64,000 nucleotides of DNA from Branchiostoma floridae (lineage: Eukaryota > Chordata > Leptocardii > Amphioxiformes > Branchiostomatidae): the NCBI RefSeq assembly GCF_000003815.2, contig NC_049982.1, positions 8,115,200 to 8,179,199 of the forward strand. Direction: 5' to 3'. The notes beneath the pieces were generated by a model. It did not search any database, was not told where the DNA came from, and saw only the letters and a program-made list of their open reading frames with translations. This document shows positions 1,243 to 55,639 of the stretch, piece by piece. The translations under genes and the position numbers were made by a program. The first letter of the stretch is position 1, and each line of letters starts with the position of its first letter.

Positions 1243-4200
1243 CTAGTCACTGGTGCAGTCCCTACAGAGGAGAACAAAAAATGATTTGTTGTACAGTTGT
1301 ACATCACTTAATGCACGGTGAAAATCTTCAAATGCCTTTACCGACACTTCCTCTTCTGTGTTGTTCACCTTGTCATAGGTCATCAAGTTTCCTTGCTGTT
1401 TTTGTACCAGGGTTTATTTTTACAGGAAGGGGTTGCTTGCGCCTCGTCGAACAGTGGAACCCATTTCATACGTTTTTTCCGAAAGACGGGTGCCGCCCCA
1501 ACCGAGGTGCCCTTCCCCTATAATCTATTGAAAATCACCTTATGTGAAGTCACGTGGAAAGAGAAGACTCCAGTAGTGTACTTACTGTCCCAAGACCTCC
1601 ACCCGCATGCTGATGCGATCATTCCATGTCTGCGGCCAGAACCGGACGTGACGTGCAGTTACCGGCGGATCCAACAGGTGGCGCACTTCAGTGTCCTGAT
1701 CAGAGTTGCCTGAGAAGACCTGGGATGATATTGTGAAGAGAGGAAAGACGGAAAATGATGGCAAACTATAAAAAGGATTTTTAGAAACACATAATGTAAT
1801 ACACACATAATTTCTAAAATTAAAGTAGAACAAGTATATGAATCATAATTGACTAATGTGCCTAAAAGTACGAGAAAATGTGTTTGTTTGAACTTTTGTT
1901 TATTAATGAAATGGTCTAATCGGCCTGAAGGCCGCTTTCATTCAGGTGATGAGGAATAGTTATAAGGGTTAAACAACATATGGCAAAGATACAGATTACA
2001 TAATTTCTAGTCCTAGTAAATATATACACATACACATCATCATCATAGTCACACGGCGTATAACAGCACCGTTGGGGTGGCATACCATTTCTTCTAGCTG
2101 AATACGAGACGGGTATGCGCCAGGTCTTCCGTCCGGGTTTTATTATTATTACACATAAATGTTACAAAACTCATAACAGGGTGCAAGCTTGAATGTTGGG
2201 TTCGTGACCAGCCATCATGGTGGTTTCTCCTTAAGAGTTGAAGATAAGATTTACCAACCTTCTCACGTCCGAATTTGTCCAGATATGTAGACCACGTGAC
2301 TCCGTCTGTGCTGAAGCGCAGTTTGTAGGAGGTCACCCACTCAGTCTGATGTCCCGACGAACTGGCAGCTCTACCCTGGGTGATAACTCCAGCCACAGTA
2401 GTCTCTGCTCCCACGTCAACCTTCACAGGAAGAACACGTCATACTGAGAAACATCACTGTCATCAGCGCGGTACAAAATGCCTGCGGTGTTCAAAATGTC
2501 GTCTGTAGTTGCATGATTGTAAGTGTGATTGGTCAACCCTTAAACTTCAATTGGTCATTTGTCCACTAAATTGTCCATGCTGACATTTGAATCCATATCT
2601 TCTGGTTTTTGATATGTTCTACATGTTCTATTAAGAAACAAAGATTACACAAATAATTAGAAAATAAAATAGATAACTGCGTGAGTCAACATATATCAAT
2701 CAAGTGGCTGTCAGTGGAGCTAGGTTATGCCTAGCAGGGAGCGGAAAGCGAACACTGGATAGAGGAAAGTAGCGGGCTGGCGCTAGCTGAATTGCTGTGA
2801 AGAGGAGGAGAAGGGAGTGCAAGTATTTGTACTATGACGATGAGGATACAAAAACATGCCAGAAGACTTGCATGGCACTATTGACATAGAACAAAAATTA
2901 TTTGATATGATCAAAAGAGTAATCTATACCCTACAGACTCCACCTACCTGTAGCCATTGCTGCTTGTTGAATTGTTCAGCACACCAGGCTCCGGCGCCCT
3001 CCTGGGAATGAAGGCGAGCTTTGCTGGCGGCACAACTGCCAGTATTGTACTGACTGGATGTAGTAATGTGGCCATCAGGAATAGCGCCGCTCTCCATACC
3101 CAGTGGTACTGCAGTGCACGGCTTCTATATACAGGATATGCATTCACTGATGGTAAATGCCATGTTACCCATCATCCCTGGACCATCGGGCACAATACAA
3201 AGTTGTCCAGATACAAACATTTGTAGCTTGATATGAATTTACGACTTCCTTAAAAACGTTCCCCTCGAGCTCAAGTTTAGCTCCGAACAAATGAATGGCA
3301 TCCTCCTAACGCCCGGTCCCCAACGGCATTATTAACACAAGTCGTTTTGACACGACTGTGGTCCCTCTGCGTAGGAGAATGAATGAATGAATGAATGAAT
3401 GAATGAATGAATGAATGAATGAATGAATGAATGAATGAATGAATGAATGAATGAATGAATGAATGAATGAATGAATGAATGAATGAATGAATGAATGAAT
3501 GAATGAATGAATGAATGAATGACATTACCATGAAATAATAACTAAAGAACACACCCTACCTGTTGGCAGGATTGTCCTCCACACCCTCCACATACACCAG
3601 CCGGCCCGGCAGGACCTGGAGGCCCGGGAACACCATCACGGCCGTCCCGCCCGTCTCGTCCGGCCGGTCCCTCAGGACCCCGGAAGGGACCTGCAAAATT
3701 TGAATATCGATTTATATCTACACTGTTTATATCATTAGTGGCAAAAGGATATTGGTGACAGTGCGTTTCATGTCGCCACTTCTTAACAAAGTAAAGGTAC
3801 GTACAGACACCTAAGGGGCTACGTCGACGAGCACTTTAATTTGGGATTTTAGAAAACGTAACAGAAAACTTTTCCAATACTGCAATAGAAAACGTAACAC
3901 AACATAACAACCATATATCGTGAATTTGACACAAGACGTATGTCAAGTACTGACAGTGCAAGCTTCGAGTCTAACAAGGCGAAATTGTGAATAAGAATCG
4001 GAAAGGGACATATATAATAAGAAACGTTACATAAAAACGAACTTTCAAGTCAAGTCCCAACAAAACGCCGATAACCTACATACCGTATGGTGTGACGGAG
4101 TTGGGGGATCGCCTGTACCTCCACAAGGTGGCGTTGTGTTCAGGGACACTGTCAACTTTGTTCGACTTCTCGCCCTTTATAAAAAAAAATGCAGGTTTAT

Positions 4201-5003
4201 AAGACTTTTTATTTAGCTGCTTGTCTTGGCTCTTGAGTATTCCTAATTGCTATAACATCTCAAGAAGGCAAATAAACAGGGAACCAATGGCCTAAACATT
4301 TGCCGGTAAACATTTACAAACCACCGTGCATCGCTGTATGATGATAGCATTTCAGACACACAAGAAGTAGAACAAAAACTCAATTTTCTTCTAACTACAG
4401 ACCTAATGCCGAGATGTTAAGGCTAAGAAGCCAGTGTTGTTATAAGGTTAACTTTAAAACAGCAACATATTCACGGTTCATTGAACTTACAGCCATGCAC
4501 TGTCAGAATTTACTTCCGTGTTGTAGCGAGCTACTGGCAAAAAGTACCTCTCGAAAGTTGTGTTCCTCAGCATGCCCGAGTTGGAACTTGGTTTCCAGCA
4601 CAGCCAGTCTCTCCCTCAGAGACGCCCCGTCAGCTTTCTCCTTCTGTAACTCCGCACGTTCGCTGTCTAATTGAGTCTGCAGGGACGACAGGTGGATTTT
4701 CAGGGCCGTCACTTCCTCCTTGTGCGAGGACGCTTCCTCCTTGTCTCCTCTAGCGGCGCTTTGCTTGATCTCCATGGCCAAGGTACGATCCTTCAGCATC
4801 AGGATCTGGTCTTTCAGTTGAGACACGTCTTTCGAGGACTTCTCACGGACATGCTTAACTTCGTGAGCGAGGAAGACGAGGGCCGCCACCAGCAGCACCC
4901 CCGCCCCGGCCGCCACGGCCACCGTCACCGGTCGGGCCGCGGGTCGGTCTCGGCGGGCCCGGCCGGTAACTTCGCTTACGTTAAGCAGCTTCTCCGAGCT
5001 CAT
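1243..5003 (-). CDS. Array gene A: type II membrane collagen-like protein with F5/8 type C (discoidin) domain
   Basis: Seven coding exons (minus strand, 5' to 3'): 5003-4548, 4174-4084, 3690-3560, 3124-2948, 2420-2259, 1719-1586, 1261-1243. Phases match throughout and sum to 389 aa. Residues 1-24 are a basic cytosolic tail (RARRDR), about 25-47 a membrane anchor, about 50-130 a charged coiled coil (positive-inside, so type II). Exon 2 ends in a linker with the furin-like site RYRR. Exon 3 is a short collagen segment with [10 protein letters not shown]. Exons 4-7 form one F5/8 type C domain: it opens with [19 protein letters not shown], continues through WLQVDVG and [20 protein letters not shown], and closes with a short last exon coding for DCTSD and stop. 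F5/8C domains usually bind carbohydrate or anionic phospholipid, so a surface or shed recognition role is inferred. The start is the Met of MSSEKLL, conserved in all four paralogues. The acceptor of exon 4 is the weakest boundary. Confidence 0.8.
3377..3522. repeat. (GAAT)n microsatellite in intron 3 of gene A
   Basis: About 36 uninterrupted copies of the tetranucleotide GAAT lie between the collagen exon and the first F5/8C exon of gene A. On the minus strand it produces a spurious His-Ser-Phe-Ile repeat reading frame with no coding meaning. A shorter imperfect GAAT/GAAC array occurs near 47750-47850 in the second tetraspanin. Confidence 0.95.
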
Positions 5004-5504
5004 TGTCAGCTTGTAGCGAGAACAGACTGACAGAGAAAGGACAAATCTATAACGTCACTTTCTGTTACCTGAGAGCACTTCCACTTTCAACAGTTGGGAC
5101 TTGAAGTAAGAATAAATACCCTGTGAGAATAGTGCGCATTTTACAGCAACGTTTCAGGGTATAGAAGCATTGACTGATTGAGGTGTACAGGTATAAGGTG
5201 TCATTTCCCAACAATGCCAACTGTGCACCTGACTCCACAAAATCAACACGACAGCAGGTTGTAAACAGTAGTGTCTTTTTCCAAACGATTGTTCCATGCC
5301 AATAATCTGAAAGGAACGGACGATGAAATTTGGTGTCATCGTTCCATTTCCCCGATACAATGTGAGACAATGGTTTGTTTTGTAAAGAGCTGGTACTCTC
5401 CAAGCAGAACATGTTATTTCAAGTTGTTAACGTCCCATTTTCAGAAATTGACGTACAATTCCTCATCAGTATATCAAATGATCAACATTTACCCGTCTGT
5501 CCCC
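5004..5504. other. 5' flank of gene A
   Basis: The sequence lies upstream of the gene A start codon on the minus strand and should contain its promoter and 5' UTR. No clear TATA box or coding exon could be assigned. Confidence 0.4.
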
Positions 5505-5507
5505 TAA

Positions 5508-6025
5508 GGCCACAGCAAGTAAATTTTATGGATGACATCCTCTGCAGACTGCAAAATAGTGCGATAGGGCGAAAAAAACAAGATGGGTGAAAAAAAAAAA
5601 CAAGATGGTTACATTTTCAAAAATAGGCACTATAAAGTTGTGATTACTGTTGTAAAAAGAATTAATGGGACAAAACATGGTATCAGAGCCAACAAGGCAT
5701 TAATTCCTATATGTACTGGTGTGGTAAAAGTGACACTAGTGTGGTAGACTGGCATCACCAACAAAGTCGGTAACCACACTCATAGCTTACATATTGGTGT
5801 CGCTTTTACAACTATCCAATAACTTTCATTTCTACAATTACAGTCCTCGGTACCTTGCAAGTGTCACTTCTACAAGTACAATTATTAGGCTATATAACAC
5901 AATATATTTGCACATTTTGTACTTTATCGTCATGTTGACCATCCCTCCTTGTTTTGTTTTTTTCTGAAATCAGGCGAAAATTAATGCGCGCGTGATGTCA
6001 TCCATAACATTTACTTGCTGTGGCC
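5508..6025. mobile_element. Harbinger-like MITE, copy 1
   Basis: Terminal inverted repeats read GGCCACAGCAAGTAAATTTT on the left and end CTTGCTGTGGCC on the right; the adjoining GATGACATC/GATGTCATC also mirror each other. The element is flanked on both sides by the trinucleotide TAA (5505-5507 and 6026-6028), as expected for the 3-bp TWA target duplication of PIF/Harbinger elements. No transposase frame is present, so it is non-autonomous. A second copy lies at 22340-22851. Confidence 0.8.
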
Positions 6026-6028
6026 TAA

Positions 6029-6783
6029 TTTACAAAACCTGAAACGCGTGATGTATGACACGTATAGCGTCCGTAAATAGGTCCAGATAATGAAATCTTT
6101 ATTGACACGACAAAAGTACAGCAACTTTCGCAAGGTCTATAATAACTACTTATACAACTAAGCAGACATATGTGAATATCTACAGGTATGAATAAGTCAA
6201 CATATTGGGTCTAGCATTTCATTTACGCTATTGGTTCTACGGTATAAAGATATACACACACACGAGTACGGGTCTACAAGTGTTCACAGTACCTAATGTT
6301 TGGTATTGCGACTATGATTAGTACACCTTATGGAATATATCAAAGGGCATTTCTATCTACCCAAAGATGTGGTATTCGGTATTTACACTAAAATTGCCAT
6401 TAGCTAACTATCTTCTTCAGTAGAACTCGAAGCGTAGTGCTTGAGACGACGCGTTCTGCTTTTCTCTTTACCTTGCAATGCGGCTTTAATTTGCTACGAA
6501 AATATCATGCACACGGGATAAGCACCATATGAACTACACATCTCTTTATGTGTGTTGTGTTCTGATATTAAACACCACAATCAAGTTAGTGTGCTTGTGA
6601 AAAATCAAGGTATATCATAATTAATAGATACATTTGCAAACTGATTTTCTCAGCCTATGAAGCATCGAATGAAGATTCTAAAGCCGCGCCAGGCCACGAT
6701 GAGAATCCTGAAATATATGGCTCTCTTCATACTTCCAGGGTCGTACTCAATTGCTGGCCTGTAAACAATGTACCAGTGATCGT
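6029..6783. other. Probable 3' UTR and downstream flank of gene B
   Basis: No coding exon is seen. The stretch follows the gene B stop codon on the minus strand. A possible minus-strand poly(A) signal (tttatt on the plus strand) lies near 6098-6103. Confidence 0.35.
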
Positions 6784-9700
6784 CTAACTGTACACATCGT
6801 CCTGTCCACGCGCCCGGTTACAGTTAGGGCCGTTGCTGCTGCAGTCAAACGTGTCGAGCATGTTATCGAAATCCTGCACCATGGACGGCATCGCCTCGGG
6901 GGCGGTGGCAGGGTTGTTATTGAAGCCCACCACATCTGCTCGCAGGCTTGCAACAGGACCTACGGAGATTAAATGTCAAGGCTTTAAGCTAGTCACCTAT
7001 ACCTTTTACATAAGATCAGGCCTACATGGCTTCTTCTTACCTCCACATTTGGTAGACGGCTTTGAAGAGGACATAAGGAATGTCTCTTCGAAAAAAATCA
7101 CATTGTCGACTCAGGAAAAAATGTGTAAACAGCCAGTTTACTAGCACCTTCGACAGGAAGGTTATGTTTCCGGCAATGTTCTTGCGCGTGCGCGCATGTG
7201 TGCTTGTGTGTATGTGTGTGTCTGTGCCTGTATCTATAACGTTATCTATATCTGTGTGTCTATATGATCATGATAACAATCAAAGGTACCCACCTTGAAG
7301 ATAGTCGTCCTCACCAAGATTTTCCAAATCTGGAGCGGCAAAAGCCACCAGTCGCTCCTCTCCACCACTGTCCGCGTCGTAGACTAGGCTTGTCACATTC
7401 CCTACACGGCTCCAGTGTGTGGCTTCTCTTCTGCGCCTGGTCCCATTGCCGCCCGTGATAGGTCCTTCCCTTCCGCTGAAGGGAATCAAGCCTACCAAAA
7501 GTCAGGAAAAGTGAGACGTTGCAATATTATCTAAAGATAAGTGGAAAGCTTCTAATTCAAAAGGTAACAACTATTAAAAACTGTAACGTTAGACATTTAA
7601 ATTGGAGAATAATATACCGGATGATATTCCTTTTGAAATATCGACTTACCCACATCACGTAAGTCTTCAAGGTCCCTCAGCACATTGCTCAGCCCGAGTT
7701 TCCTAAGAAACCCCGGAGAAGACCTTGTCAGAGCCGTTATTTCAGGGTGTAAGACGTCGTAGTTAACACATGCGTCTGTGGAGTAGTTGTCGTCTGCTGA
7801 CGGACCGTAGAGAGGACGCACCAGACAGGACGCTGTGGCAAGATTATCATAAGGAATGAGCTAAGATCTGATTCCAATGCCGTGGAACATCCTGGAGAAA
7901 TTTTAAAAATTGAGTTGCAATAATATGTAATTAAAATCTATTTCACAGTGAAATCCTTCATAGCCATCAGCACAGTAGCAGGTGTAACCGCCAGCGCGGT
8001 CGATACAAAATCCGCCATTTTAATTTGAAACGTCGAAGAATGACTGGGGGGCACTCCTAGTATCCGGTAGTCCAAGGGGACAAATTTGTGGCTTCGTAGC
8101 CCGACCGGGGCTACATCCCTGGCGGGCACCAGTGCTGTGAGTGTGAATGCTTCTTGAACAACAAATCGTGTACATGATTTTCAAAAGTAAGAAAAGAAAT
8201 GTCTCATTAGGAAAGTAATATCTGTATATGGTGCAGAATAAAGTGTTTTTTTTCTATTTCAGAACTAACCTGTTTGATAGCTGTGACTTCTTCCACACAC
8301 CCCGCAGCACCCACCAGGAGGCCCGGGCGGCCCGGGAACACCATCACGGCCGTCCCGCCCGTCTCGTCCGGACGGTCCCTCAGGACCCCGGAAGGGACCT
8401 GTGGCAGTTGTAGTGAGGTTTACAGTTACATTTGACAGATACACAGGTACAGATGGTGTAGCAGTAGCATCCGTTAGTGTATAAATCGTTATAAATACAT
8501 CAGCCCGGGACAAACTACACTACACTAGCTAATGGCAGTTTTTAAGGTGAGACGAGTAACAATATCAACAATTCCCTTCACCCTGCCACCAGTTGTAAAA
8601 CGTTAGCGTCTTCGTAAAAAATGCAGAGATCAAGTGATCTTTATTTTTGAAATATCACTGTTGTTATTCCAGGTGTGTTCGAGTGGAAAGAACCATGTCT
8701 GCCCACCTAAGCCGTAGGGTGTTGTGATGGTGTTTGCAGCTCTCTTGGACCGTCGCATGGGGGCGCTGTGATCTCCAAGCTTGACGTCATCACCGACATG
8801 ACTCGGTTTCACGTCGGGATCAGTCTCCTGTTGTAAAACAAACAAATGTTCAAAATTTACGATCAGACAGTATATACAACAAGTTCTCTTACAATTCCAT
8901 ACCATCACCGCAATACTAACACTGTTTACAGCTATCTAAAGTTGAAAAACCAGACATGTCGAGTTTTTGCCGGATGGTTACCTTTGAGGTATGGGTGACC
9001 CAACGTGCCCAATTAATCTGCGGTGTTCATGCGTATGATATATACATGAATACATATTCAGACATTATTGTTGTTTTCAATGATATGAGACAATTGTGAT
9101 TCTGAGCGCTATCACAGAATTTTACCATAAAGTAAGGGAAAGGTTATGTAAAATTCTAAGAGTTGATGGAAGAATGACATATCTAAGGTGTGAGATTATA
9201 GCATTATGTATGCTTAAGTATGCTGTATTGAACACCCTAACCTGGTCATAATAAGCAAATCTAATATAAATGGAGTGAAGAACTTTACCTAAAGCTTACT
9301 ATGATGTAACATTGTGTTAACATTGTTGTTATCGAAACGGAAGAATCTGTGTTGCATCCTTACCTCATGAGAGGTTCGGTAGATTGGTTGTTCTTCATTT
9401 TTGAATCCGAGTTGGAACTTGGTTTCCAGCACAGCCAGTCTCTCTCTCAAAGACGTCCCGTCAGCTTTCTCCTTCTGTAACTCCGTCTTCAGTAACGACA
9501 GTTGAATTTTTAGGGCCGTCACTTCCTCGTTGTCTCCAGTAGCGGCGTCCTGCTTGATCTCCATAGCCAAGGTACGCTCCTTCAGCGCCAGGATCTGGTC
9601 ATTTGCCTTTACTAGTTGATCCTCCAGTTGAATTGCGTTCCCCCGAATATATTTGACTTCGTGAGCTAGGAAGGCAAGGGCCGCCACCACCAGCGCCCCC

Positions 9701-9801
9701 GCCCCGGCCGCCACGGCTACCGTCACCGGTCGGGCCGCGGGTCGGTCTCGGCGGGCCCGGCCGGCAACTTCGCTTACGTGTAGCAGCTTCTCCGAGCTCA
9801 T
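6784..9801 (-). CDS. Array gene B: type II membrane collagen-like protein with unrecognised C-terminal domain
   Basis: Six coding exons (minus strand): 9801-9364, 8827-8707, 8398-8270, 7832-7650, 7491-7294, 6959-6784. All junctions keep phase and give 414 aa. Exons 1-3 are the constant part of the family: tail, membrane anchor, coiled coil, linker ending RRSKR (furin-type) and a collagen segment with [10 protein letters not shown]. Exons 4-6 (residues about 230-414) encode a domain I do not recognise. It contains DACVNYDVLHPEI, a tetra-arginine stretch (TRRRRE) that could be another proprotein cleavage site, and a Cys pair near the C-terminus (DCSSNGPNC). The protein ends QDDVYS. The exon 3 donor and the 7832 acceptor fit each other in phase (1), skipping an EGF-like relic in the intron. 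The extracellular ligand is unknown. Confidence 0.72.
7942..8019 (-). pseudogene. EGF-like exon relic in intron 3 of gene B
   Basis: The minus strand encodes the C-terminal half of an EGF module, NGGFCIDRAGGYTCYC followed by ADGYEGFHCE, matching the C-x-C-x2-G-Y-x-G-x2-C end of EGF domains. An in-frame TAA precedes the Asn codon (8020-8022), no acceptor AG or donor GT lies at suitable positions, and the first EGF cysteines are missing. The flanking exons splice in phase without it. It reads as a decayed EGF exon. Confidence 0.7.
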
Positions 9802-11426
9802 AGCGAGAATGTGACTTGGCGTGACAACAAACCCTTAAATTTCTCACGTTGACTGTAGACAATTTTCTACCTGACTGAGGACAGTGTGGCAGTGTCAGAT
9901 ACCGAAATGCGCAGCTGATATGAAGAATACCAGTGGTCGAAGGTCATTGGTTAGAACACCTGTGGCATTCAATTATATTCATGCATGACATCTGATTAGT
10001 TGGTTGGTGTTACGTAAAACGTTTTACTAACGATGTGAACTATGCTCTTCTCATGACGGTTTACATAAAACTCTGAGACAATTTCTTGACACATCTTATG
10101 ACGGCGCAGGCGACGTATCATAATTCCTCCTTCGTGAAAAGTTTCGTTCCGATCCGTTCAGCATTAGGAGGTCCTTCGGCGGTCTTAAGCATACATTTTC
10201 TCTTGAAAATTACAACACTGCATCAGTAAACTAATTCTGTCCAGGTAAACACTCGCATGTATACGTGACCTTTTCCTACTTGAATGAATACACCGGCACA
10301 TCATGACTCGATGTTCACTGCCACTGGCCCAATCCCAACACATAGCGCAGATCGGTCCGAGAGTTAACTGAACACACCATTTCATTTCAAACAAACCTGA
10401 CGAACGAAGAAGAGAAAGGCACACTTACATCCATTAACGAGGAAACGACGGCAGAAAGAAAATAAAATAAGTCAAGTCGAAAATTACTAAATCACAGCAG
10501 CCTGGGGCCAGATTGAGACGTTTTAGGAAGGTCAGAAAGGCGAGAAAATATTTCTTTCAAAGATCTAATTTGTTATTGGAGACGTGCAGTCACAGTTACT
10601 AAGTTTCCCAAACGTACAGTCCATGTCATGTTTTAAATACACGTATAAAGACAGGAGGATAAAACCTGCTTTTAGCATGTGTCCTTGATGTCTGATATAC
10701 AGCATTCCCATTAGGAATTCATGACCTCCTCGTTTACAATCATGAACATACCCCCTACGAATCAAGTATTTGCCTTCTTGGAACCTGCTTGGTATGAAGC
10801 GATAAAGGTTCTTCTTCGAAGTGCTAAGCGAAGGAGAGGGGGAAATGGTGGCGTGATGCCATCAGTATGTAGTGTCTTCGTCTGATTTGAACAGGTTTTT
10901 AGACACTGGCACCTATCCGGTCTTTGTGTTTTATGGACCTATGCTAGTCTATCACGACATAAGGCGTGTAACTGTTACTAGTACTTAAACTCCGCAAGTA
11001 TGGCTTCAGCTAAGCAGCAGATGCAGACGTAGTAATGTAATGAATAACAGGCGATCAGACAACTTTATGAAGTTCTACCCAACATCTGCTTAGAGATTAC
11101 TGACAAGCACGTAAAGAGAGAGGCAACAAAGATCAGCAGCAGAGCTGACTTTTGCTCACTACAAAATACATTTCTGATGCCATGGCTAGATTATCTGAGA
11201 GATAATACATTTTAACAATTAGTATACATGAAATCATATGCTATGTATTCTTACTTACATGTATCTTTAAGGTTTTAAGGTTTTTTTATCCAGAAGAAAG
11301 CTGGAGCTTCAAGATGCAATGAGGTATTGAGGTATTTGAAGATGTGGTGAGCATAGGGGCACCTTTGGATTAACTACGTACAAATGATTCCAGCCAAGCA
11401 TATGACAATACAAGTGCTGAAGATTG
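9802..11426. repeat. Duplicated 5' flank of gene B
   Basis: No coding exon is seen. About 9850-10190 is closely matched by about 16625-16990 upstream of gene C (shared strings such as GGTCGAAGGTCATTGGTTAG and GACGGCGCAGGCGACGTATC). About 10200-10440 matches about 21710-21960 upstream of gene D. These are segmental-duplication copies of the 5' flank and presumably carry the shared promoter. Confidence 0.75.
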
Positions 11427-11432
11427 TTTATT
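11427..11432 (-). terminator. Poly(A) signal, gene C
   Basis: AATAAA on the minus strand (tttatt on the plus) lies about 1.08 kb past the gene C stop. The surrounding 400 bases are conserved at the equivalent place after gene D, which supports a real 3' UTR end. Confidence 0.55.
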
Positions 11433-12505
11433 GCGTAGTACATGGAATTCGCACAAATCTTCCAGAGACAAAATGAACATACAAAAATGAAACAATACTC
11501 ACTTGTTTACTGTATAGCACGATAAAAATCATGTTGAAACAATTCCAAAATGACTAAAGAAATATGCCTTTGTTGATAGAGCATGCAGCACTTAAATCCC
11601 ACAAAGACCACCAACAAACTTAAGGACCACAGAATACTGCATTGTCAATTGTACAGCATAGTTTTCCTGTTCACAAATTAACAATAAATTGTTCTAGTTT
11701 CTTTCCAAGTTGAGGTGATGAAAAGCATCTTGATTATGAATAGTTGCACACAGCAAAGGAAACGTGTCTGAAACTAGTGTCTAATGAAGGAGTAATATTT
11801 TGAAACAAAAGTAGATTCAGAATAGATCTATATCTAGCTTTATAGGGCCTTCACACTGAAACCGAATTAACAGGGATCAAGCAGAACCAGTCGGAATGAA
11901 GTATTTGCAAAATTCCTGCCACATTCGGGGTCATTCGGGTGGGAATTCCAAATGGACCTTATATCCCCTTCACACGAGAAGGAATGAGCCCAAATGCCGT
12001 CAGAATGAAAATTCTTTTCTATTCCTGGGAATTCGTAGTGTATTCTAGAAATTCTCACTGCATTCCAGATATTCTTTTGGCCACATTCTAACAGGATTCG
12101 AAGTGGCTTGCCATTTCGGTTCTCCATCGAATGAGATAAGAATGTTTCGAATAATGTTGGAATGCCGTAGAATGCGGTCATACTGCAGTTAGAATAGTTA
12201 GAATACACTTAGAATATACCTTGAATGACATTCGATATCTCTCCACTTCAAATGTATCTCGACAGTTTTTAACATGTCAAAATCTGTCGGGCCAGCCAAG
12301 AGAACGGGCACAAATAGCTGGAACGCAGTGAGAATTTCTGGAACACACTACGAATTGCCAGGAAATGACAGGAATAGAAAAAAAATACATTCTGACGGCA
12401 TTCCGCGTGATTCTTGCTCTCGTGTGAAGGGGGCTTTAAAAGACGACTTACTGTTTTGTATAGATTTACTTGACAATCTCTAATTTTGGGAAGATGCCAG
12501 AGCTA
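11433..12505 (-). other. Probable 3' UTR of gene C
   Basis: About 11440-11790 is recognisably homologous to about 17125-17460, the region after gene D, for example around GTCAATTGTACAGCA. It is interrupted by the inverted-repeat element at about 11843-12437. Confidence 0.6.
11843..12437. mobile_element. MITE-like inverted-repeat element
   Basis: The ends are inverted copies: GGCCTTCACAC on the left and GTGTGAAGGGGGC on the right. Interior segments also mirror each other: CCTTCACACGAGAAGGAATG and AATGCCGTCAGAATG on the left against CATTCTGACGGCATT and CTCGTGTGAAGGGG on the right. It is rich in the words GAATTC, ATTCC and TTCTAG and has no coding frame. The target-site duplication is unclear. 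Confidence 0.6.
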
Positions 12506-16599
<4,094 letters not shown>

Positions 16600-17115
16600 T
16601 GCGAGAATGTGACTTGGCGTTACCAAGATTGTAGACAATTTTCTAGACGACCGAGGACAAAATGGCAGTGTCGGATACCGATATGCGCAGCTAATATGAG
16701 GGATACCAGTGGTCGAAGGTCATTGGTTAGAACACCATTGGCATCATTCATGCATTCATTCATGCATGACATCTGATTAGTTGGTTGGTGTTACGTAAAA
16801 CTTTTTACTAAACGACGTAAGCTATCCACGTCTCCTGGCGGCTTTACAGAAAACTGCACACCTTTTCTCTGAGACAATTACTTGACACATCTTCAATATG
16901 ACGGCGCAGGCGACGTATCATAATTCCTCCTTCGTTCCTAAATTTTCGTTCCTATCCGGTCAGCATTAGGAGGTGCTTCGGCCCTTAACCAAACATCCCA
17001 ACACTGCCTCTCTGCACTAACCCTGTCCTCAAGATTTGGTGAGCAACTTTGGGATGATTACACACAGATAGTTCCAGCCAAGCATGAGACATTAGATGTA
17101 CGTGCTGAAGATTTT
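16600..17115. repeat. Duplicated 5' flank of gene C
   Basis: The segment upstream of gene C is a close copy of the segment upstream of gene B (about 9850-10190), in the same orientation relative to the gene. No coding exon is seen. It presumably carries the shared promoter. Confidence 0.7.
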
Positions 17116-17121
17116 TTTATT
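17116..17121 (-). terminator. Poly(A) signal, gene D
   Basis: AATAAA on the minus strand lies about 0.86 kb past the gene D stop, at the position equivalent to the gene C signal at 11427-11432. Confidence 0.55.
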
Positions 17122-17977
17122 GTGTAGAACATCGACTTTGACGTAACGTTGCCGACAAAATAACATAGATAGAAATACTCTCGTACTTTTTGTACATCCC
17201 GATAAAGTCATCTCGGAACAATCATAAAATGACTGATAGAAATGCTCCATTGTTTACAGAAGAGCACGCCAAAACAAACTAAAGGACCATAGAGTACAGT
17301 CTTGTCAATTGTACAGCAAAGGTATCCTGTTACCAACCAAAAGGTATATGGAAATAGTTCCTTTCCAAGACGAAGTGATAAAAAGCTTGTTGATTATGAA
17401 CAATATCATACAGCAAAGGAAACTTGTCAGCAAGTGTCTAATGAAATAGATCTGAACTGAAAAGGTGATGTTAAGGTAATGTTAGACATGTTATTAGATA
17501 TGAAGATTGAATTGCTTTGCGCTTGTTGGAGGTACACATGTCATTTACTGTATTTGAAAAACACAGCTCAGGGTATCCAGATTGGCATGGCATCAACAAC
17601 ATTTACAATATCATTTAAGATTGTTACTAATGTTAGTACTCCTTAAAAAAAATTTAAAAGCGACATAATCAATTCCTCTCAGTAAATCAAATAAGCGTTT
17701 TGATAATAAGCGACCCATCTATATCTAACTTGACCTTCCTTTTTGCTACCCCTACCCATCCATTAAATATTATGTGGAACCATTCACTGCTTCTCAAGTT
17801 TGGTTGTGCACAAACTTTTTACACCTGCTATCTGCCTACCAAATATCAGATAAAGATTCATTCACAGCTTCTCGAGTTAAGATGTTGACATACATACAGA
17901 CGCACAGCATAGCTACTACACCCTGGCGCAACTGAAAACGTAACCTTCTTGGCTAATGTAATAAGTTGGGTACAGTA
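17122..17977 (-). other. Probable 3' UTR of gene D
   Basis: The distal part (about 17122-17460) is homologous to the gene C 3' UTR. The proximal part (about 17470-17977) is unique within the window. No coding exon is seen. Confidence 0.55.
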
Positions 17978-20900
17978 CTAACTGCAGCGATATTGATACA
18001 TAGTGGCCAGTCCAAAAACATTGATGTTAGTGGTTGCCCAGTCAATCACGTTGCCATGATGACCACAGAAGACTGACCAGTCTGTCCCTATCTCAGCTGG
18101 AGTCAGCACGCGGTCCCAAAGGTTCACCTGTGACAGTTCTCCGATGAACGCTTGATCCGGCTGGAACCCTCCCCCGACTCTGTCTTGATCTTGTGCAAGG
18201 ATCCATGTTCCACCACTGCGCACTGCCCCTCCTACGCTCAGCCCCGAGCCGGAAGCCTGAAGAGCGCCGTCAATGTAGACCTGCCAGGCTCCGTTGGTGC
18301 TGCGCCAGGTGGCACATACTGCATGCCTCTCACCATCCCAAACAGGCAAGACACCAACGGCAGCCTGATTACCTTGTACGAACAACTGAAAAATACATTC
18401 CAAGGGCATTGACTGTTATCTTGGGAAATTTACCATGTGTTTGTAAGTTAAGTATTGAGAAATTAAAGATCATCAGAGTGGCGAGTTAGATAACAGAGGT
18501 TTGTGATTGTCAACTTACTAAGAATCCGCCCGCTCCGTTTTTGAGGATGAGTATCTCATTGTGATGTTGTTGTACAGCATAGCTGACCAAACCTGCTGCA
18601 CTGTTGGAACTCATGTCGCTACGCATTTGCAGACATAAAGTAAAACTTCTTAAGTTCTGAGACCATGTTGTTCCCAGCTTGGCGTAGTTACCGACGCTTT
18701 GTGGAGCCGGAAAGGTTGTCTTTTGCAAATAAGTTGCTGTATTTGACAGAAAAGACATATCTTTGTCAAAGCTTTATTTTCGGTCAAATACTTTCCTCGG
18801 GATGCCAAGTCGCAGGTTGAGGACACTATGGGTGATCGTAAAGTCTGGTTGGACGTCCTTGGTTGGACGTAGTCCGGGCAGCACGCTCGAAATCACAACG
18901 ATGATGGCATCTTTGGAGTTGCGGTGGAGTAAAACTCCTCTGCCGGCTAAACTCCTTGCCCAGCTCATGTTACTGTCTTAAACCACCGCAAGATCTGCTT
19001 GGAGATTAATGTACAGTATCTATAGGTTCATTGACATTGTGGTAATTCCTTCCGACAAATACATGTATACAGCAAAATTTTTAGTCTTATTCGTGTATTA
19101 CCAAAATAGTGTGAGTCCTACGGGTATTTTGAGATCCCAAGACTCAGTACTCAAAGAAGAAGGGAGGCTTGTCTCAAAGAAGAAGGGAAGTTGTAGAAGG
19201 AGAATGTGTGTATAATTTGAGTAGATCCCTTTCCATACCATGAGGTATCTGACCCCTAGCCTGGGCTATTCCATTTATGTCTCAGGGGTTTTCACTCTTC
19301 ACAGCTTCTCGAATTATGCTGTGTATACAGGCACACAACACATCATGGCACAGCTGAAAACATAACCCTCTTGGCGAAGGTAACTAACCTGTTTCATAGT
19401 TACCTCGTTCACAAATCCCGCAGCATCCGCCAGCAGGACCAGGAGGACCGGGAGGCCCGGCAACACCATCACGGCCGTCCCGCCCGTCTCGTCCGGCCGG
19501 TCCCTCGGGACCCCGGAAGGGACCTGCGGCAGTTGCAGTGAGGTTCATAGTTACATTTAAAGGATACATGATGGTGTGGCAGTAGCAACCGTTAGTGTAA
19601 AGATCGTTATAAGTTACAAACACCTCAAGGACAAACTACACAAGATAATGACATTTGTCGACGAGTAACAACATTAAGAACTCATCCTGCGCATGCGCAC
19701 CATTGCAGTAGTAAAGAGTTGTTGTCCTCTTAAAAACAATGGCAAAGTTCAAGTGATCTTTATGTTTAAAAAATCAATTTCGTTAATCGATTAGTGGAAA
19801 GAACCCATGCTTGCCCACCTGAGCCGTAGGGTGTTGTGATGGTGTTGGCCGCTCTCTTAGACCGCCGCAAGGGGGCGCTGTGATCACCAAGCTTGACGTC
19901 ATCACCAACTTCACTCGGTTTCACATCGGGGTCAGTCTCCTGTTGTAAAATGCTTAAAATTTTACTCCGCATCCGCACTTCTCGGTTCAATAGATAGATA
20001 AATCATACTTAAAGTACGTCCATTAGATCAATTTGTGATGGCCATTTCGTTTTAGCCCAGTCAGGATTTCATCCAACCAGAGCTCCGCGGAAATTTTGCC
20101 GCTGATTCTCAAGTGTTTTGAATTTTTGTCTTCTGATCACTTCATTCAACATGGAAGATCACACCCTATTATATCATGTATGCTTCAATCTTCTTTCCGT
20201 ATGTCCAAATTAATCACGTTACGTTTCTGAGATAAGATTCTGCTCCTTTTCTCCTCCCTAATTCGACATGTCTCCGTCGGCCTTGCCTCTCATAGTAATA
20301 ATCATAGCACTACTAATGTACGTACGTGTTTACGTATATTATCATTATACTACTTTCAGACATTTTATACAAACAAGCCCCCAACAATTCTACATCATCG
20401 CCGCGCACATAAACGCTGTTTACTGCTTCACCCTTAACCTCTGAAAGGGTCGTTACTTACAGCTATCTAAAGTTGAAAGACCAGACATGTTGAGTTTTTG
20501 CCCGAGGCAAGTTACCTGTCAGTGCGGGTGACCCAACCTGCCCAATTATTCGCGGTGTTTATGTGCATGATATATACATGGCAGCTTAACATGTACAAAG
20601 GGAAAACATTCTGCGCTTTCCCGAAAATGTTTGTTTCGTAGTTGAATTTTCAATCTGCTGTATTGAACACCCTTCCCTGGCCATAACAGGCAAAATTGAA
20701 TATGGAAATGGCGAATAACTTTTTACGAAACTTTCCTGTAATGTGATGAGTCGGGAGCGTTAGCAGGAAAGGCGGGGAGTGTTATTGAATAAGAAAAAAT
20801 ATGTTGCCCCCTTACCTCATGAGAGGTTCCGTAGGTTGGTTGTTGTTCGTTTTCGACACCGAGTTGGAACTTGGTTTCCAGCACAGCCAGTCTCTCCCTC

Positions 20901-21295
20901 AGAGACGCCCCGTCAACTTTCTCCTTCTGCAACTCCGCACGTTCGCTGTCTAGTTGATTCTGCAGGGACGACAGGTGGATTTTCAGGGCCGTCATTTCCT
21001 CCTTGTGCGAGGACACTTCCTCCTTGTCTCTCGCAGCGGTTTCTTGTTTGATCTCCATGGCCAAGGTACGATCCTTCAGCGCCAGGATCTGGTCATTTGC
21101 CTTCGCTAGTTGATCTTGCAGGTGACTTGCGTTCTCTCGGACATATTTGACCTCGTGAGCGAGGAAGACGAGGGCCGCCACCACCAGCACCCCCGCCCCG
21201 GCCGCCACGGCCACCGTCACCGGTCGGGCCGCGGGTCGGTCTCGGCGGGCCCGGCCGGTAACTTCGCTTACGTTAAGCAGCTTCTCTGAGCTCAT
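17978..21295 (-). CDS. Array gene D: type II membrane collagen-like protein with pentraxin domain
   Basis: Five coding exons (minus strand): 21295-20816, 19939-19819, 19523-19389, 18736-18519, 18385-17978. Phases agree and total 453 aa. Exons 1-3 are the constant part: membrane anchor at about 25-47, coiled coil slightly longer than in B and C, linker ending RRSKR, then a collagen segment with [10 protein letters not shown]. Exons 4-5 (about 207 aa, normal for the family) encode a pentraxin domain. SFTLCLQM and HAVCATWRST supply the two cysteines of the conserved disulfide and the H-x-C-x-[ST]-W-x-[ST] pentraxin signature; GELSQVNLWDRVLT and GNVIDW are typical of its C-terminal half. Pentraxins bind phosphocholine or glycans in a calcium-dependent way, so a membrane-bound or shed pattern-recognition role is inferred. 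The start is the conserved MSSEKLL; the frame is open further upstream but that part is not conserved. Confidence 0.82.
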
Positions 21296-23902: not shown

Positions 23903-26900
23903 TTATTTTAAAGGACTTGATGGATTTTTCAGTTGTAGAAAGCACACTTGTCCATTTCTCAACCCCACGCATATTTTCCCGTCTTTCGCCACGGCCACCG
24001 CGAGAGGTTGATGCTCGAATGTAAACCGACAAAGCTGGAAGAACTTCTCCCGCTTGACGCACCAGACCCTGACAGACTTGTCTGCCGATCCGGAAACCAC
24101 CAGGCGTCCGTCTGACGTCACTGTCACGCAAGTGACATCCTGTTGGCTCCTGGTGACTTCTGCTTGGTACGGACCTAGAGGCTCCTGCTCACTCAGTACA
24201 GAGCCGCTCATGCGGTCCCAGATGATCAGTTTGTTGAGAGAATTTCCAGTCACGACTGTTGCGCTGTCCCCAGCGATGGCCGAGAAGTGGCACCACGTCC
24301 CGAACCCTCGCGAACAGAAGTCCTGTTTAAGTGTCGAGCTTTCCGCAGTGTTGAAGTTCCAGGCTTCGAGGTAGCTGCCGTTGTAGCTGCACATGAGTTC
24401 GCCGTCGTCACCCGTGAAGCCCACACAGTTGACGCCGTAAAATTCGGACGTGTACTCTCTGAGTAGTGCTCCATTGTTCACGTCATACGCACGAAGCTTG
24501 TTGTCAGCAGAGCCGGTGACGACGTAGGATCCACCTGATGTTACTGACAAATGGGTGGGAGCTGGACAGGAATCTGGTACGAGTATGGTTCTCAGTGGTC
24601 TTCCATACCGCGTAGTGGCATTCACAGACCATATCTTTACGGTGTGATCCAGGGATGAGCTGAGAACGACAGGTTCGTGCTCTAGCGTGGTGGCTACTAC
24701 CGAGGTCACATCCCCTGTGTGTGCTCCCCAACACTCGGTTTGTCGAGATGCCTTGCGGATATCCCAGACAGCGAGGAACCCGCCAGCGCTACCCGACAAC
24801 ACACTGCTGTCTCCTACGTCACAAAAACATGTTATCCTCCCCGGCGTTTTTCCGATGTTAATAACAGCCATTTCCCCGACAGGAGCGCGACTTCTGTTGC
24901 AATGCCAGAACCGAACAGCTCCCTCTGTATCTCCGGTCAGGAATGATACCCCGTCCTCATGCCGTGTGAATAGTATTGCACTGACGTAACTAGCAGATTC
25001 TTCGACGTTACTGACGTAGTGGATGGCTTGACTGTCCCCACAAAGACTTACGGTCGTGATAGTGCCACCTGTTGATGCCGACAGGAGGAGATCATATTTA
25101 TGGTCTACCGCCAACGCCGTGATGACAGCGCCGTCAGGATGGCCGCAGTAGCCCCGGGACTCCCTCCCCGTCTCGTCCCAAACACGGTACCGCCCTTCCT
25201 CGGGGCAGCCGCTTACGATCTTCTTCTGATGAGGAAGTACTAGAGCTGGATAAGACAGCCACCTTGCTTCAGGCCCATGGACTGTTGAAGTGGGACGTGT
25301 CACTGTTGTACCCACCAAGCTCCATTCACAGGATATGTTGTCCCTCGAGCAAGCTAATATGGTGTCATCCCCCGAAAAAGCAACAGACATGACACCGTAA
25401 CTCACATGACGGAACGTCTGTACAACCTCCGCTGTTTGAATGTTCCAGACAACAACAATTCCGTCCCATCCCCCTGACGCAGCGAGCTTCGAGTCTTTAG
25501 AAATGGCAACAGCTTGGACCGTTCCCCCGTGACAAGTGAGGACGTGCTTCCGGATAAGTCTGAAGGTTCCAGGTTTGTCTGGTTGCGGTAGCAAGGACCA
25601 AACTTTCACCTGCCGATCCTTGGAGCCGGAAACAAAGGTGTTTCCGTCCTGAGCCACCGCCACTGCGCGAATTGACCTAGAGTGGGCACTTGTACGGATG
25701 GCAACGAGTTCCCCTGTACGAGCATTCCAAGCCCTCAGTTCGCCGTTCCGGGACCCCGACACCGCTCGGCTCCCATTCACACTAATGGCTACAGCGTAGG
25801 TGGCGAGGTCGTGTCCTGGCAATCGATGTACTTCCTGTAAGCTTCCTTCCATACGCCAGAGTCTGCAAGTGGTGTCCAAAGACCCGGAGAGTAACAGCGC
25901 ACCCTGTGCCGACTTCACCACTCTGACGCACCGTATGCTGTCGCTGTGTCCTCTGTACACACACACCTGCTTCCCCTCTCCGAGACTCCAAATCCTGATG
26001 GTATCATCGTCCATTCCCCCTCCTGACACAATTCTGGTATCGTCCGGTGACAATGTGACAGAGTACACGGAGTTTGTGTGGCCGTGCAGTTTATGTATCA
26101 GCTCGCGCCTGTTCGTGCCCCACACCCCAACTGATCGGTCACCTGAGGCCGATACCAAGTACTTGTCGTCATTTGTTATGGCTAGGCTGAAGACAATGCC
26201 GTCGTGCCCTGTCAATTTGGAAGAGCTAAAGTTGCGCATGTTCCATATCCTGATGGTGTTGTCACTCGAACCAGACGCCACGTTGTTGCTGCGGTGAAAG
26301 GCGCACAAAGCTCGCACCTGTCCAGTGTGACCTGTCAACACCTTTGACGTCGACGTAGAGGTGAGATCCCAAACCCTAACTGTTTTGTCACTTGATCCTG
26401 AAACGACTCTTTTACCATCATCGACGAACGCGACAGCATTGACTTTATCACTATGTGATGTCAAAGTCCAGAGATTTTCCAACTTGTCAGCATCCCAGAT
26501 TTTGACGGTCGTGTCATAAGAAGCCGAGGCCAGCCGACGGTCATCTCTAGACAGAGCCATGGCGTACACATGGCTGCAATGCCCACGCAGTATGCCGAGA
26601 TCCCTCAGTGATTCCAGTTCCCACGCCCTGATAGTGAAGTCTGCGGATCCGGTGAAGACTCGCTTGGTGCGGTCAGAGGTGACGGCGATGCACAGCACAG
26701 CGTCCGTGTGTCTGTCGTATGTCTTCACAATGGGTCCACCTGGGGCGACCAGACACGATTGGCAAGGGTGCAACACAGATATGTCCCTCTCGCTGTCGTT
26801 CCGCCGCACCTGCTCCACCAACCCTCTCACCGCCTCCTCGGGTGAATCTGACAACCTGCCGAGCAGCTGGCCACCTAACTGTGACTTGTCTGTAGACAGC

Positions 26901-54911: not shown

Positions 54912-55639
54912 GATAAAAGCGAGACACCTTTCACCTTTCCGTGATAAGAGCGAGTTAATGAATGACAAATCTTGGTACTGGACGACTTTTATAACCTGGG
55001 CATCACCCTCCGTTGCAACCGCTGGCTCAATCTTCCCTCAACACGTTCTCCTTCTCCGATAGAGTGTTGCAAGTTGGAATCTACCGACTGTCTCGGTGCT
55101 TCTAGCGCTGTAACGTTTCACCGGCGTACCCACACTTTGGGGCAACACATCAGCTTATGGGTGCAGCTTTTTATATGGCAGTGAACGACCCAGATAATTA
55201 ACAGACCAACGTTGCTACACCTGTTGGTAAACTTTGTACTCACAGTTCTGGACAGCAGAGAAAGCTAACTCTCCTCCTTAATAAACAGGTTTAGTTCTTG
55301 CTAGGCTGCAGTGAAGTGCTCACACGTACCTCAAGTCATACGTGGTCACTTTAAAACGTCCACAAGTGGTAAGACACAAGGGCGAAGGTGAAGAGACAAA
55401 ATCTGATTCTGACACTCACGACCGTCACCCAAAGGTCCGCTGATTATTTGTCCGACGCACCCATGATCACGTCACATGATGACGTGACGTCAGGTGCTGA
55501 CGTTTTATGATATCATCGTGAGAAGAGCAAATACGCAATGTGTTTTCGCACCACACCTGATGCTGGCATATCATAGTGCAAACAGGCGATATTGACAAAG
55601 GTGACATCATTACCTGCATGTATGCAGGTATGGTTTTGA
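54912..55639. repeat. 5' flank of GIY-YIG-like copy 1 (repeat family R, copy R1)
   Basis: About 55180-55610 is homologous to about 60390-60850 (5' flank of copy 2) and to gene-less segments at about 57800-58140 and 58330-58680. Shared strings include CTGACGTTTTATGAT and GAGAAGAGCAAATACGCAA. Confidence 0.7.

What the first reader, a model, noticed from the sequence alone, without database searches (positions are those of the whole stretch)
1243..21295. Tandem array of membrane collagen-like proteins with one constant stalk and four different heads
Four consecutive same-strand genes share exons 1-3 almost unchanged (MSSEKLL tail, membrane anchor, coiled coil, [10 protein letters not shown] collagen). 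They end in unrelated extracellular modules: discoidin, an unknown domain, long collagen plus a Cys-rich module, and pentraxin. This is a constant-region/variable-head layout built at the level of genes. Collagen stalks with pentraxin or discoidin heads suit multivalent pattern recognition. The sequence shows the architecture; the recognition role is inferred.
Basis: partly seen in the sequence, partly recalled or inferred. Interest (0 to 1): 0.92.

Follow-up and report, generated by a model that had tools for sequence, protein, structure and literature searches.

The report
Forty-three collagen-stalk genes with swappable heads
Four neighbouring genes that put different binding heads on one membrane collagen stalk are the edge of an array of 43 stalk copies, probably in a lancelet, whose heads and binding loops have been shuffled between genes, which looks like a way of building a varied recognition repertoire.

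Summary
Four minus-strand genes carry a pentraxin head (Pfam E 9e-40), collagen plus an unknown Cys-rich module, an unknown domain, and a discoidin head (F5/8-C, E 1e-31). They are the upstream edge of one array: 43 stalk exon-1 copies on one chromosome and strand over 305 kb. Heads by my census: 25 discoidin, 13 Cys-rich, 1 pentraxin, 1 unknown, 3 headless fragments. New: (1) all 27 exon-2 copies found (among 32 stalk copies read) carry a furin-type site before the collagen, so ectodomains may be shed. (2) Discoidin variation sits in four loops that line up with the factor VIII C2 binding spikes; loop 1 has pN/pS 2.1, loops 2 and 3 are below 1, loop 4 is unresolved. (3) Stalk exons, head exon D1 and head exons D2-D3 show independent histories in 14 genes; one gene is a clean chimera. 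(4) A similar stalk occurs outside the array with a fifth head downstream. Exon 2 comes in two diverged types, so 'exons 1-3 almost unchanged' is only partly right. A recognition role is inferred; no expression or binding data were available.

The parts
20816..21295 (-). Pentraxin-head gene, exon 1: cytoplasmic tail MSSEKLL..., transmembrane segment, coiled coil
   Evidence: hydropathy peak 2.69 over 19 aa; heptad contrast reached by 14 of 1000 shuffles
19819..19939 (-). Pentraxin-head gene, exon 2 (type a) with furin-type site RSKR
19404..19523 (-). Pentraxin-head gene, exon 3: [10 protein letters not shown] collagen stretch and cysteines
18519..18736 (-). Pentraxin head, first exon
17978..18385 (-). 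Pentraxin head, second exon, ends in stop
16162..16599 (-). Cys-rich-head gene, exon 1
14484..14607 (-). Cys-rich-head gene, exon 2 (type a), furin-type site RSKR
14087..14208 (-). Cys-rich-head gene, exon 3, short collagen
13372..13654 (-). Cys-rich-head gene, extra collagen exon, 31 G-X-Y triplets, 18/54-base repeat
13016..13193 (-). Cys-rich head, first exon
12506..12683 (-). Cys-rich head, last exon ...[12 protein letters not shown], ends in stop
9364..9801 (-). Unknown-head gene, exon 1
8659..8827 (-). Unknown-head gene, exon 2 (type a); 3' end uncertain, other type-a models have 121 or 124 bases
8270..8398 (-). Unknown-head gene, exon 3, collagen
7650..7832 (-). Unknown head, first exon
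7294..7491 (-). Unknown head, second exon
6784..6959 (-). Unknown head, last exon; ends earlier than the relative read at C4:8.88 Mb
4548..5003 (-). Discoidin-head gene, exon 1
4084..4174 (-). Discoidin-head gene, exon 2 (type b), furin-type site RYRR
3560..3690 (-). Discoidin-head gene, exon 3, 12 G-X-Y triplets and cysteines
2948..3124 (-). Discoidin head exon D1 (loops 1 and 2)
2259..2420 (-). Discoidin head exon D2 (loop 3)
1586..1719 (-). Discoidin head exon D3 (loop 4)
1243..1261 (-). Last 19-base exon (Q)DCTSD-stop, brings a cysteine that can pair with the one before AVPLGMES
   Evidence: read by eye; the equivalent exon in other copies is predicted; neither model run chose it for this gene

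Best explanation
Each gene makes a type II membrane protein: short basic tail inside, one membrane span, a coiled coil that trimerises it, a furin-type cleavage site, a collagen rod with terminal cysteines, and a head. It works either as a surface receptor or, after cleavage, as a shed collectin-like oligomer that presents three or more heads and binds repetitive microbial or altered-self surfaces. The array diversifies by unequal crossing-over and gene conversion through introns, which re-pair stalks with heads and re-pair the loop-bearing exons inside the discoidin head. Rarer heads (pentraxin, unknown domain) were captured, with their introns, from families elsewhere in the genome. Shown from sequence: layout, copy number, conserved furin-type motif, loop-focused variation, reassortment. 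Inferred: trimerisation, shedding, direction of head capture, ligand binding, immune role.
For: 43 exon-1 copies in one same-strand array. R-X-[K/R]-R in 27 of 27 exon-2 copies found, against 3.2% when their residues are shuffled; a distant stalk relative on C12 also has it (RRRSKR). Tail-membrane-coil order by hydropathy (4 window proteins) and heptads (one protein). Discoidin loops: pN 0.32 against 0.047 in the framework, 0 of 20000 random block sets as high, 17 of 17 head sets with different loop combinations; loop 1 pN/pS 2.14, bootstrap 1.58-3.25. Reassortment: among 14 discoidin genes exon 1/2/3 distances correlate (rho 0.47-0.55, p 0.001), D2-D3 correlate (0.56, p 0.001), stalk against head and D1 against D2/D3 do not (0.01-0.16, p 0.09-0.45); with any one gene left out the linked pairs stay at 0.36-0.74 and the unlinked at -0.08 to 0.31 (10 of the 15 pairs re-run). 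Chimera 7962855: diagnostic exon sites 119:1 for 8062065 before the break, 4:27 after it in favour of 8054523. Pentraxin and unknown heads have relatives elsewhere that match exon by exon. Purifying selection on exon 1 (pooled pN/pS 0.49 over 28 copies, one with a stop) says many copies are functional.
Against: No transcript, protein, ligand or expression evidence. Exon 2, and so the furin-type site, was not found in 5 of 32 copies: three headless fragments but also two genes with heads (8114549, 8088840); the exon-2 queries contained the motif, so a copy without it could be missed. Loops 2 and 3 have pN/pS below 1, loop 4 is unresolved (0.72, 0.42-1.39), and loop 1 exceeds 1 only among the ten heads with the nine-residue form (0.388 against 0.152), not among the seven with the short form (0.082 against 0.199). 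Loops of any discoidin family may vary more than its core; no unrelated family was run as a control. Synonymous change is also three times higher in loops, which points to recombination and old alleles as much as to selection. The collagen stretch is short (7-12 triplets) in discoidin, pentraxin and unknown-head genes and absent in 8114549, so a stable triple helix is not assured. Six of the 32 copies read are broken or fragments. Stalk and head class are not fully independent: nearest exon 1 has the same head class in 20 of 28.
Confidence: 0.58

Rival explanations
1. Adhesion or matrix family: membrane or shed collagens that organise gill, gut or cuticle matrix, with heads for matrix partners, and expansion without an immune purpose.
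For: The closest described membrane collagens with furin shedding are collagens XIII/XXIII/XXV and COL-99 (PMC4678570, passages), which are matrix and synapse proteins (recalled, and titles and abstract starts); discoidin heads bind many non-microbial ligands in vertebrates (recalled; PDB hits include factor V/VIII, neuropilin, DDR, lactadherin).
Against: 43 tandem copies with variation concentrated in binding loops and reassorted head exons would be unusual for matrix proteins (my judgement, not searched).
Confidence: 0.22
2. Neutral churning: ordinary birth-and-death plus gene conversion in a tandem array; loops vary because they are least constrained, and shuffling is a by-product.
For: Loops 2-4 have pN/pS 0.60, 0.52 and 0.72, and the short form of loop 1 shows no excess; broken copies and headless fragments are present; no physical-distance signal.
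Against: Loop 1 pN/pS 2.14 with bootstrap above 1 in 1000 of 1000 draws; framework strongly conserved; 17 of 17 loop combinations distinct.
Confidence: 0.25
3. Alternative-head splicing: some stalks feed two heads, so the array is partly a protocadherin-like cluster in which one stalk is spliced to its own or a downstream head.
For: Three discoidin head sets lie downstream of a Cys-rich-head gene without an exon 1 of their own (two read; one placed from hit coordinates); the two sets read keep open collagen, D1, D2 and D3 exons with AG and GT signals where expected, and exon 2 ends in phase 1, the phase at which the collagen exon starts.
Against: The other heads each have their own stalk; the stalk before one orphan set has a stop in exon 1; 5' truncation after duplication explains the orphans more simply.
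Confidence: 0.1

Closest known systems
Class A scavenger receptors (SR-AI, MARCO, SCARA3/4/5)
   Same: Type II membrane proteins with coiled coil, collagen and a C-terminal end that differs between members (PMC3567963, passages).
   Different: Heads here are pentraxin, discoidin and unknown modules, not SRCR or C-type lectin; a furin-type site is conserved; 43 tandem stalk copies with reassorted exons against the five members named in that paper.
MACIT collagens XIII/XXIII/XXV and C. elegans COL-99
   Same: Type II, juxtamembrane furin-type site and collagen; ectodomain shedding shown for them (PMC4678570, passages).
   Different: They are described as largely collagenous with a conserved C-terminal region; here the collagen is mostly short and a folded head follows. 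That paper reports no MACIT in Branchiostoma floridae or B. belcheri.
Sea urchin SpTransformer (Sp185/333) genes
   Same: Clustered, similar genes with mosaic sequence in a rapidly diversified immune family (search listing and abstract starts only).
   Different: Small two-exon genes with internal repeats (listing); no membrane anchor, collagen stalk or swapped folded domains (recalled).
Clustered protocadherins
   Same: Constant and variable parts encoded in a tandem cluster (recalled).
   Different: There the constant exons occur once and are shared by splicing (recalled); here the constant part is copied with nearly every head.
Neuronal pentraxins (for the pentraxin head)
   Same: Best PDB matches of the head, E 1e-34 and 7e-33; membrane-linked forms exist (recalled).
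   Different: No collagen stalk or array (recalled); here the head is one of four in a collagen-stalk family.

Membership tests
Class A scavenger receptors | Type II topology with N-terminal cytoplasmic tail | tested here: inconclusive
   Best hydrophobic segment within the first 98 residues at 28-46 or 29-47 with net +3 before it in 4 of 4 window proteins; no dedicated predictor run
Class A scavenger receptors | Coiled coil followed by collagen | tested here: met
   Heptad contrast 0.56 against 0.34 in shuffles, 14 of 1000 as high (one protein); G-X-Y runs in 26 of 27 models (27 of 32 copies modelled); Pfam Collagen passes its cut-off only in the Cys-rich-head gene of the three tested
Class A scavenger receptors | SRCR or C-type lectin head where a head is present | tested here: not met
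   Pfam: Pentaxin, F5_F8_type_C, and none for the other two heads
Class A scavenger receptors | Binding of modified lipoprotein or bacteria | not testable with these tools
   needs protein
MACIT collagens | Juxtamembrane furin-type site | tested here: met
   27 of 27 exon-2 copies found; exon 2 not found in 5 of 32 stalk copies
MACIT collagens | Largely collagenous ectodomain | tested here: not met
   7-12 triplets in discoidin, pentraxin and unknown-head genes (none in 8114549), 12-58 in complete Cys-rich-head genes, then a folded or Cys-rich head
MACIT collagens | Conserved C-terminal 34 residues | not tested
   no direct comparison made
Pentraxin domain (head of the first gene) | Pfam PF00354 over most of its length | tested here: met
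   E 8.9e-40, profile positions 5-190 of 194
F5/8 type C (discoidin) domain | Pfam PF00754 over full length | tested here: met
   Window head E 1.1e-31, positions 2-127 of 127; a neighbouring array head E 2.7e-32
SpTransformer family | Two-exon genes with element mosaic in exon 2 | tested here: not met
   complete models have five or more exons
Clustered protocadherin type | Single shared constant region | tested here: not met
   43 copies of the constant exon 1

The most novel reading that the evidence does not exclude
An invertebrate chordate keeps a 305 kb germline library of shed, collagen-stalked recognition proteins in which three blocks (stalk, loop 1-2 exon, loop 3-4 exons) are freely re-paired by recombination, new heads are captured from unrelated families, and some stalks may also choose between two heads by splicing; haplotypes of different animals would then carry different head libraries.
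Probability: 0.3. Interest if true: 0.87.

Novelty: new variant of a known kind. Interest (0 to 1): 0.74.

Why it matters
If right, it is a constant-stalk/variable-head recognition repertoire built from whole genes and diversified by exon recombination, in what looks like an invertebrate chordate. It gives a concrete, testable case of how binding loops can be diversified without somatic rearrangement, and of unrelated heads joined to one stalk with their exon structure kept.

Tried and rejected
Considered and rejected: (a) chance: 43 same-strand copies, many with open frames and distinct sequences; an assembly artefact is not excluded for near-identical copies, and gaps of N lie in the array. 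(b) One transcription unit with many alternative heads: heads have their own exon 1 except three orphan sets. (c) Retrocopies: heads keep introns. (d) Strict coupling of stalk type and head type: Cys-rich and discoidin heads occur with both exon-2 types; nearest exon 1 has the same head class in 20 of 28, more than shuffled labels (mean 12.8; 69 of 5000 as high), so coupling is partial.

Led nowhere: Pfam for the Cys-rich, unknown and fifth heads and PDB for them (only weak hits with E 0.8 or worse). First ab initio models often read the collagen exon in the wrong frame; replaced by homology-guided models, which cover 27 of 32 copies, still mis-end several genes and insert a minisatellite in 8048823. 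No structure prediction was run. Literature searches for this array showed nothing on it in their listings, each cut to its top 5-20 rows; a 2008 survey of the amphioxus immune repertoire that I recall was not seen.

Dropped before counts: the discoidin alignment holds 17 sets = 15 regular plus 2 orphan sets, leaving out 8081723 (only D3 found) and 8009289 (no D1 found), both next to runs of N; the Mantel set of 14 also leaves out the orphans and 8114549 (no exon 2 or 3 found) and includes 7938538, whose exon 1 lacks its start; these sets use the matched pieces of exons, not always whole exons. Exon-1 alignment: 28 of 32 copies. The 11 copies at 7,831-7,913 kb were not read in full; their heads come from hit positions (34 of 34 candidates scored; 150 of 922 candidates scored, list cut).
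Full report
Setting. The window is C4:8115200-8179199 of a 513 Mb genome in 431 contigs.

Observation. On the minus strand four genes start at 21295, 16599, 9801 and 5003. Homology-guided models give: pentraxin-head gene, 5 exons, 448 aa; Cys-rich-head gene, 6 exons, 440 aa; unknown-head gene, 6 exons, 430 aa; discoidin-head gene, whose last exon I place at 1261-1243 by eye, against the model, which runs past it and out of the window. Exon 1 encodes the tail, a hydrophobic segment (19-residue hydropathy 2.44-2.69, net +3 before it in 4 of 4) and a coiled coil (heptad contrast reached by 14 of 1000 shuffles, one protein). Exon 2 encodes a linker with a furin-type site; exon 3 the [10 protein letters not shown] collagen and a cysteine cluster. 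Heads: Pfam Pentaxin E 8.9e-40; F5_F8_type_C E 1.1e-31 on the window's own head and 2.7e-32 on a neighbouring copy; no Pfam match for the other two. The best PDB matches are neuronal pentraxins and, for the neighbouring discoidin copy, factor V/VIII chains. Collagen is below the Pfam cut-off of 27.2 bits in exon 3 of the pentraxin gene (18.2) and the discoidin gene (22.2), and above it in the Cys-rich gene with its extra collagen exon (65.8).

Scale. Exon 1 as protein finds 43 distinct loci, all on C4 at 7,831,275-8,136,494 and all minus strand, plus one weak match on C12 (E 0.0014, 27%) (one search gave 40 scored of 43 candidates with DNA). I read 221 kb of the array (and the window), with 32 of the 43 copies. 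Census: discoidin 25 (17 read, two of them with head exons missing beside runs of N and one without exons 2 and 3; 8 placed from hit coordinates), Cys-rich 13 (10 with exon 1 read, one of these with its head placed; 3 placed), pentraxin 1, unknown 1, fragments without a head 3. Three further discoidin head sets have no exon 1 of their own. So the window's four heads are an unusually diverse edge. The pentraxin and unknown heads share an exon 3 variant (GGCCG) that ends in phase 1, whereas discoidin and Cys-rich models mostly end exon 3 in phase 0.

Constant region, corrected. Exon 2 was found in 27 of 32 copies; it has two diverged types, a (RSKR, 9 copies) and b (RYRR, 18 copies), alike around the basic site and at the exon end only. 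Both keep R-X-[K/R]-R: 27 of 27, against 3.2% when the residues of these exons are shuffled; the queries contained the motif, so a copy without it could be missed. It was not found in three headless fragments and in two genes with heads, 8114549 and 8088840. The window's discoidin gene has type b, the other three type a. Furin shedding is established for the similar membrane collagens XIII, XXIII, XXV and shown for COL-99 (PMC4678570, passages seen); that paper found no such collagen in Branchiostoma. Shedding here is inferred. Collagen length: 7-12 triplets in discoidin, pentraxin and unknown-head models, none in 8114549, 12-58 in complete Cys-rich-head models.

Variation in the discoidin head. 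Seventeen head sets (15 regular, 2 orphan) were aligned. The loops were placed by lining up with factor VIII C2; that residues M2199/F2200, V2223, L2251/L2252 and the W2313-Q2316 region form its binding face is recalled, and the loops were defined after I had seen the alignment. Loops: pN 0.323, pS 0.404; framework: pN 0.047, pS 0.136. No random choice of four blocks of the same lengths reached the loop pN in 20000 trials; all 17 sets differ in loop combination. Per loop, pN/pS is 2.14 (bootstrap 1.58-3.25), 0.60 (0.46-0.77), 0.52 (0.46-0.59) and 0.72 (0.42-1.39); framework 0.34. The loop 1 excess comes from the ten heads with the nine-residue form (0.388 against 0.152); the seven short forms show none (0.082 against 0.199). 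So positive selection is indicated for one loop in part of the family, not for all loops, and higher synonymous change in loops shows that recombination and age of alleles also matter.

Reassortment. In 14 discoidin genes with all six pieces, distance matrices of exons 1, 2 and 3 correlate with each other (rho 0.47-0.55, p 0.001), D2 with D3 (0.56, p 0.001), but stalk with head exons and D1 with D2 or D3 do not (0.01-0.16, p 0.09-0.45); physical distance explains nothing (-0.14 to 0.02). Leaving out any one gene, in the 10 of 15 pairs re-run, keeps linked pairs at 0.36-0.74 and unlinked ones at -0.08 to 0.31. The linked pairs show that the test has power at n = 14. Gene 7962855 is a clean chimera: 96-100% identical to 8062065 per 200-column window through exon D1, introns included, where 8054523 is 49-90%; then 94-98% to 8054523 (0.89 in the last, short window) against 87-94% to 8062065, with the change in the intron between D1 and D2. 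Diagnostic exon sites are 119:1 against 4:27, Fisher p 1.6e-24 (linked sites, so the p-value is nominal). Since loops 1-2, 3 and 4 lie on separate exons, such exchange recombines binding loops.

Origin of heads and stalk. The unknown head has exon-by-exon relatives on C4 at 8.86-8.90 Mb, C2, C7 and C362; the one I read lies next to EGF-like repeats (Pfam EGF 1.4e-9 on one of them). The pentraxin head has many relatives, best 83% on C3, with the same two-exon split. The Cys-rich head has relatives on C3 and C11 and weaker ones elsewhere. An outside discoidin on C10 is 66-67% identical in two exons and lies downstream of a possible signal peptide with no stalk seen in 8 kb (by eye). The direction of capture is inferred. 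The stalk has relatives too: the C12 locus has tail, membrane span, coil, RRRSKR and [10 protein letters not shown] exons (by eye), and with it as query further loci appear on C9, C8 and C19, two weak coil-only matches on C6 and C4, and array members at 24-33% identity. In three of these places read (C9:23.22 Mb, C8:7.54 Mb, C9:11.87 Mb) a furin-type site and, downstream on the same strand, a fifth head follow (GRTTCP...GGGA/TN...CLP...CAVC); it has no Pfam match (one copy) and resembles the short-chain collagen C4 end domain as I recall it. These genes were not modelled. So the stalk plan is probably older than the array and may have carried at least five heads.

Orphan heads. Two of three orphan discoidin sets were read: collagen, D1, D2 and D3 exons are open with AG and GT signals, and 9.4 and 10.5 kb upstream hold no exon 1 or 2 match better than E 0.1. 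They may be truncated relics or alternative heads for the upstream stalk; phases allow splicing.

Mechanism. I favour a shed or surface oligomeric recognition protein diversified by recombination (0.58). The expansion, loop focus and reassortment argue for recognition; what is recognised, and whether in defence, is not shown. An adhesion role (0.22), neutral churning (0.25) or partial head choice by splicing (0.1) remain open; these overlap with each other and with the favoured reading, so the odds do not add to one.

Known or new. It works like a class A scavenger receptor or a shed membrane collagen, but fails their defining heads or collagen content, so I file it as neither. Searches of the open library listed no paper describing it in the rows shown; subscription papers are not covered, and the individual genes are probably in public annotation under automatic names (recalled). 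PMC2575513 (passages) treats domain shuffling in the amphioxus innate immune network; the words collagen, discoidin and pentraxin do not occur in its main text.

Noticed in passing
window 23906-29890, minus strand: Directly upstream of the array, same strand: an ORF with many WD40 repeats and a P-loop (GMGGAGKT, read by eye; 25 of 48 Pfam rows shown), preceded by a TIR_2 exon (E 2e-12): probably a TIR/P-loop/WD40 gene of innate-immune type.
   Followed up: partly
C9:23.22 Mb (L032), C8:7.54 Mb (L033), C9:11.87 Mb (L034), C12:6.77 Mb (L031): Sister stalk genes with the same exon plan; in L032-L034 a fifth, C4-collagen-like head lies downstream (one copy scanned, no Pfam match).
   Followed up: partly
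window 6653-6820: After the stop of the unknown head another frame continues the C-terminal tail seen in the relative at C4:8.88 Mb, so this head looks shortened by a frame change.
   Followed up: partly
window 53373-55037 and 58946-60274, minus strand: Two long ORFs sharing NAVYLLLCRFNG...VQAYAGKAKNGVE (by eye), no Pfam match at E 0.001.
   Followed up: no
window 3377-3522: A perfect 36-copy GAAT microsatellite in an intron of the discoidin-head gene.
   Followed up: no
window 11940-12430: A stretch with inverted end sequences (by eye), like a small transposable element, between the unknown-head and Cys-rich-head genes.
   Followed up: no
window 49600-49866: 39-base repeat, 6.8 copies, 95% matches.
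   Followed up: no
C4:8046253-8047297 (L022): A minisatellite with an open frame (NTCMALIHCQ repeats) in the Cys-rich-head gene 8048823; the model took it as an exon, probably wrongly.
   Followed up: no
C12:6771444-6773120 (L031): 559-codon reverse-transcriptase-like ORF (LINE type, by eye) behind the C12 stalk gene.
   Followed up: no
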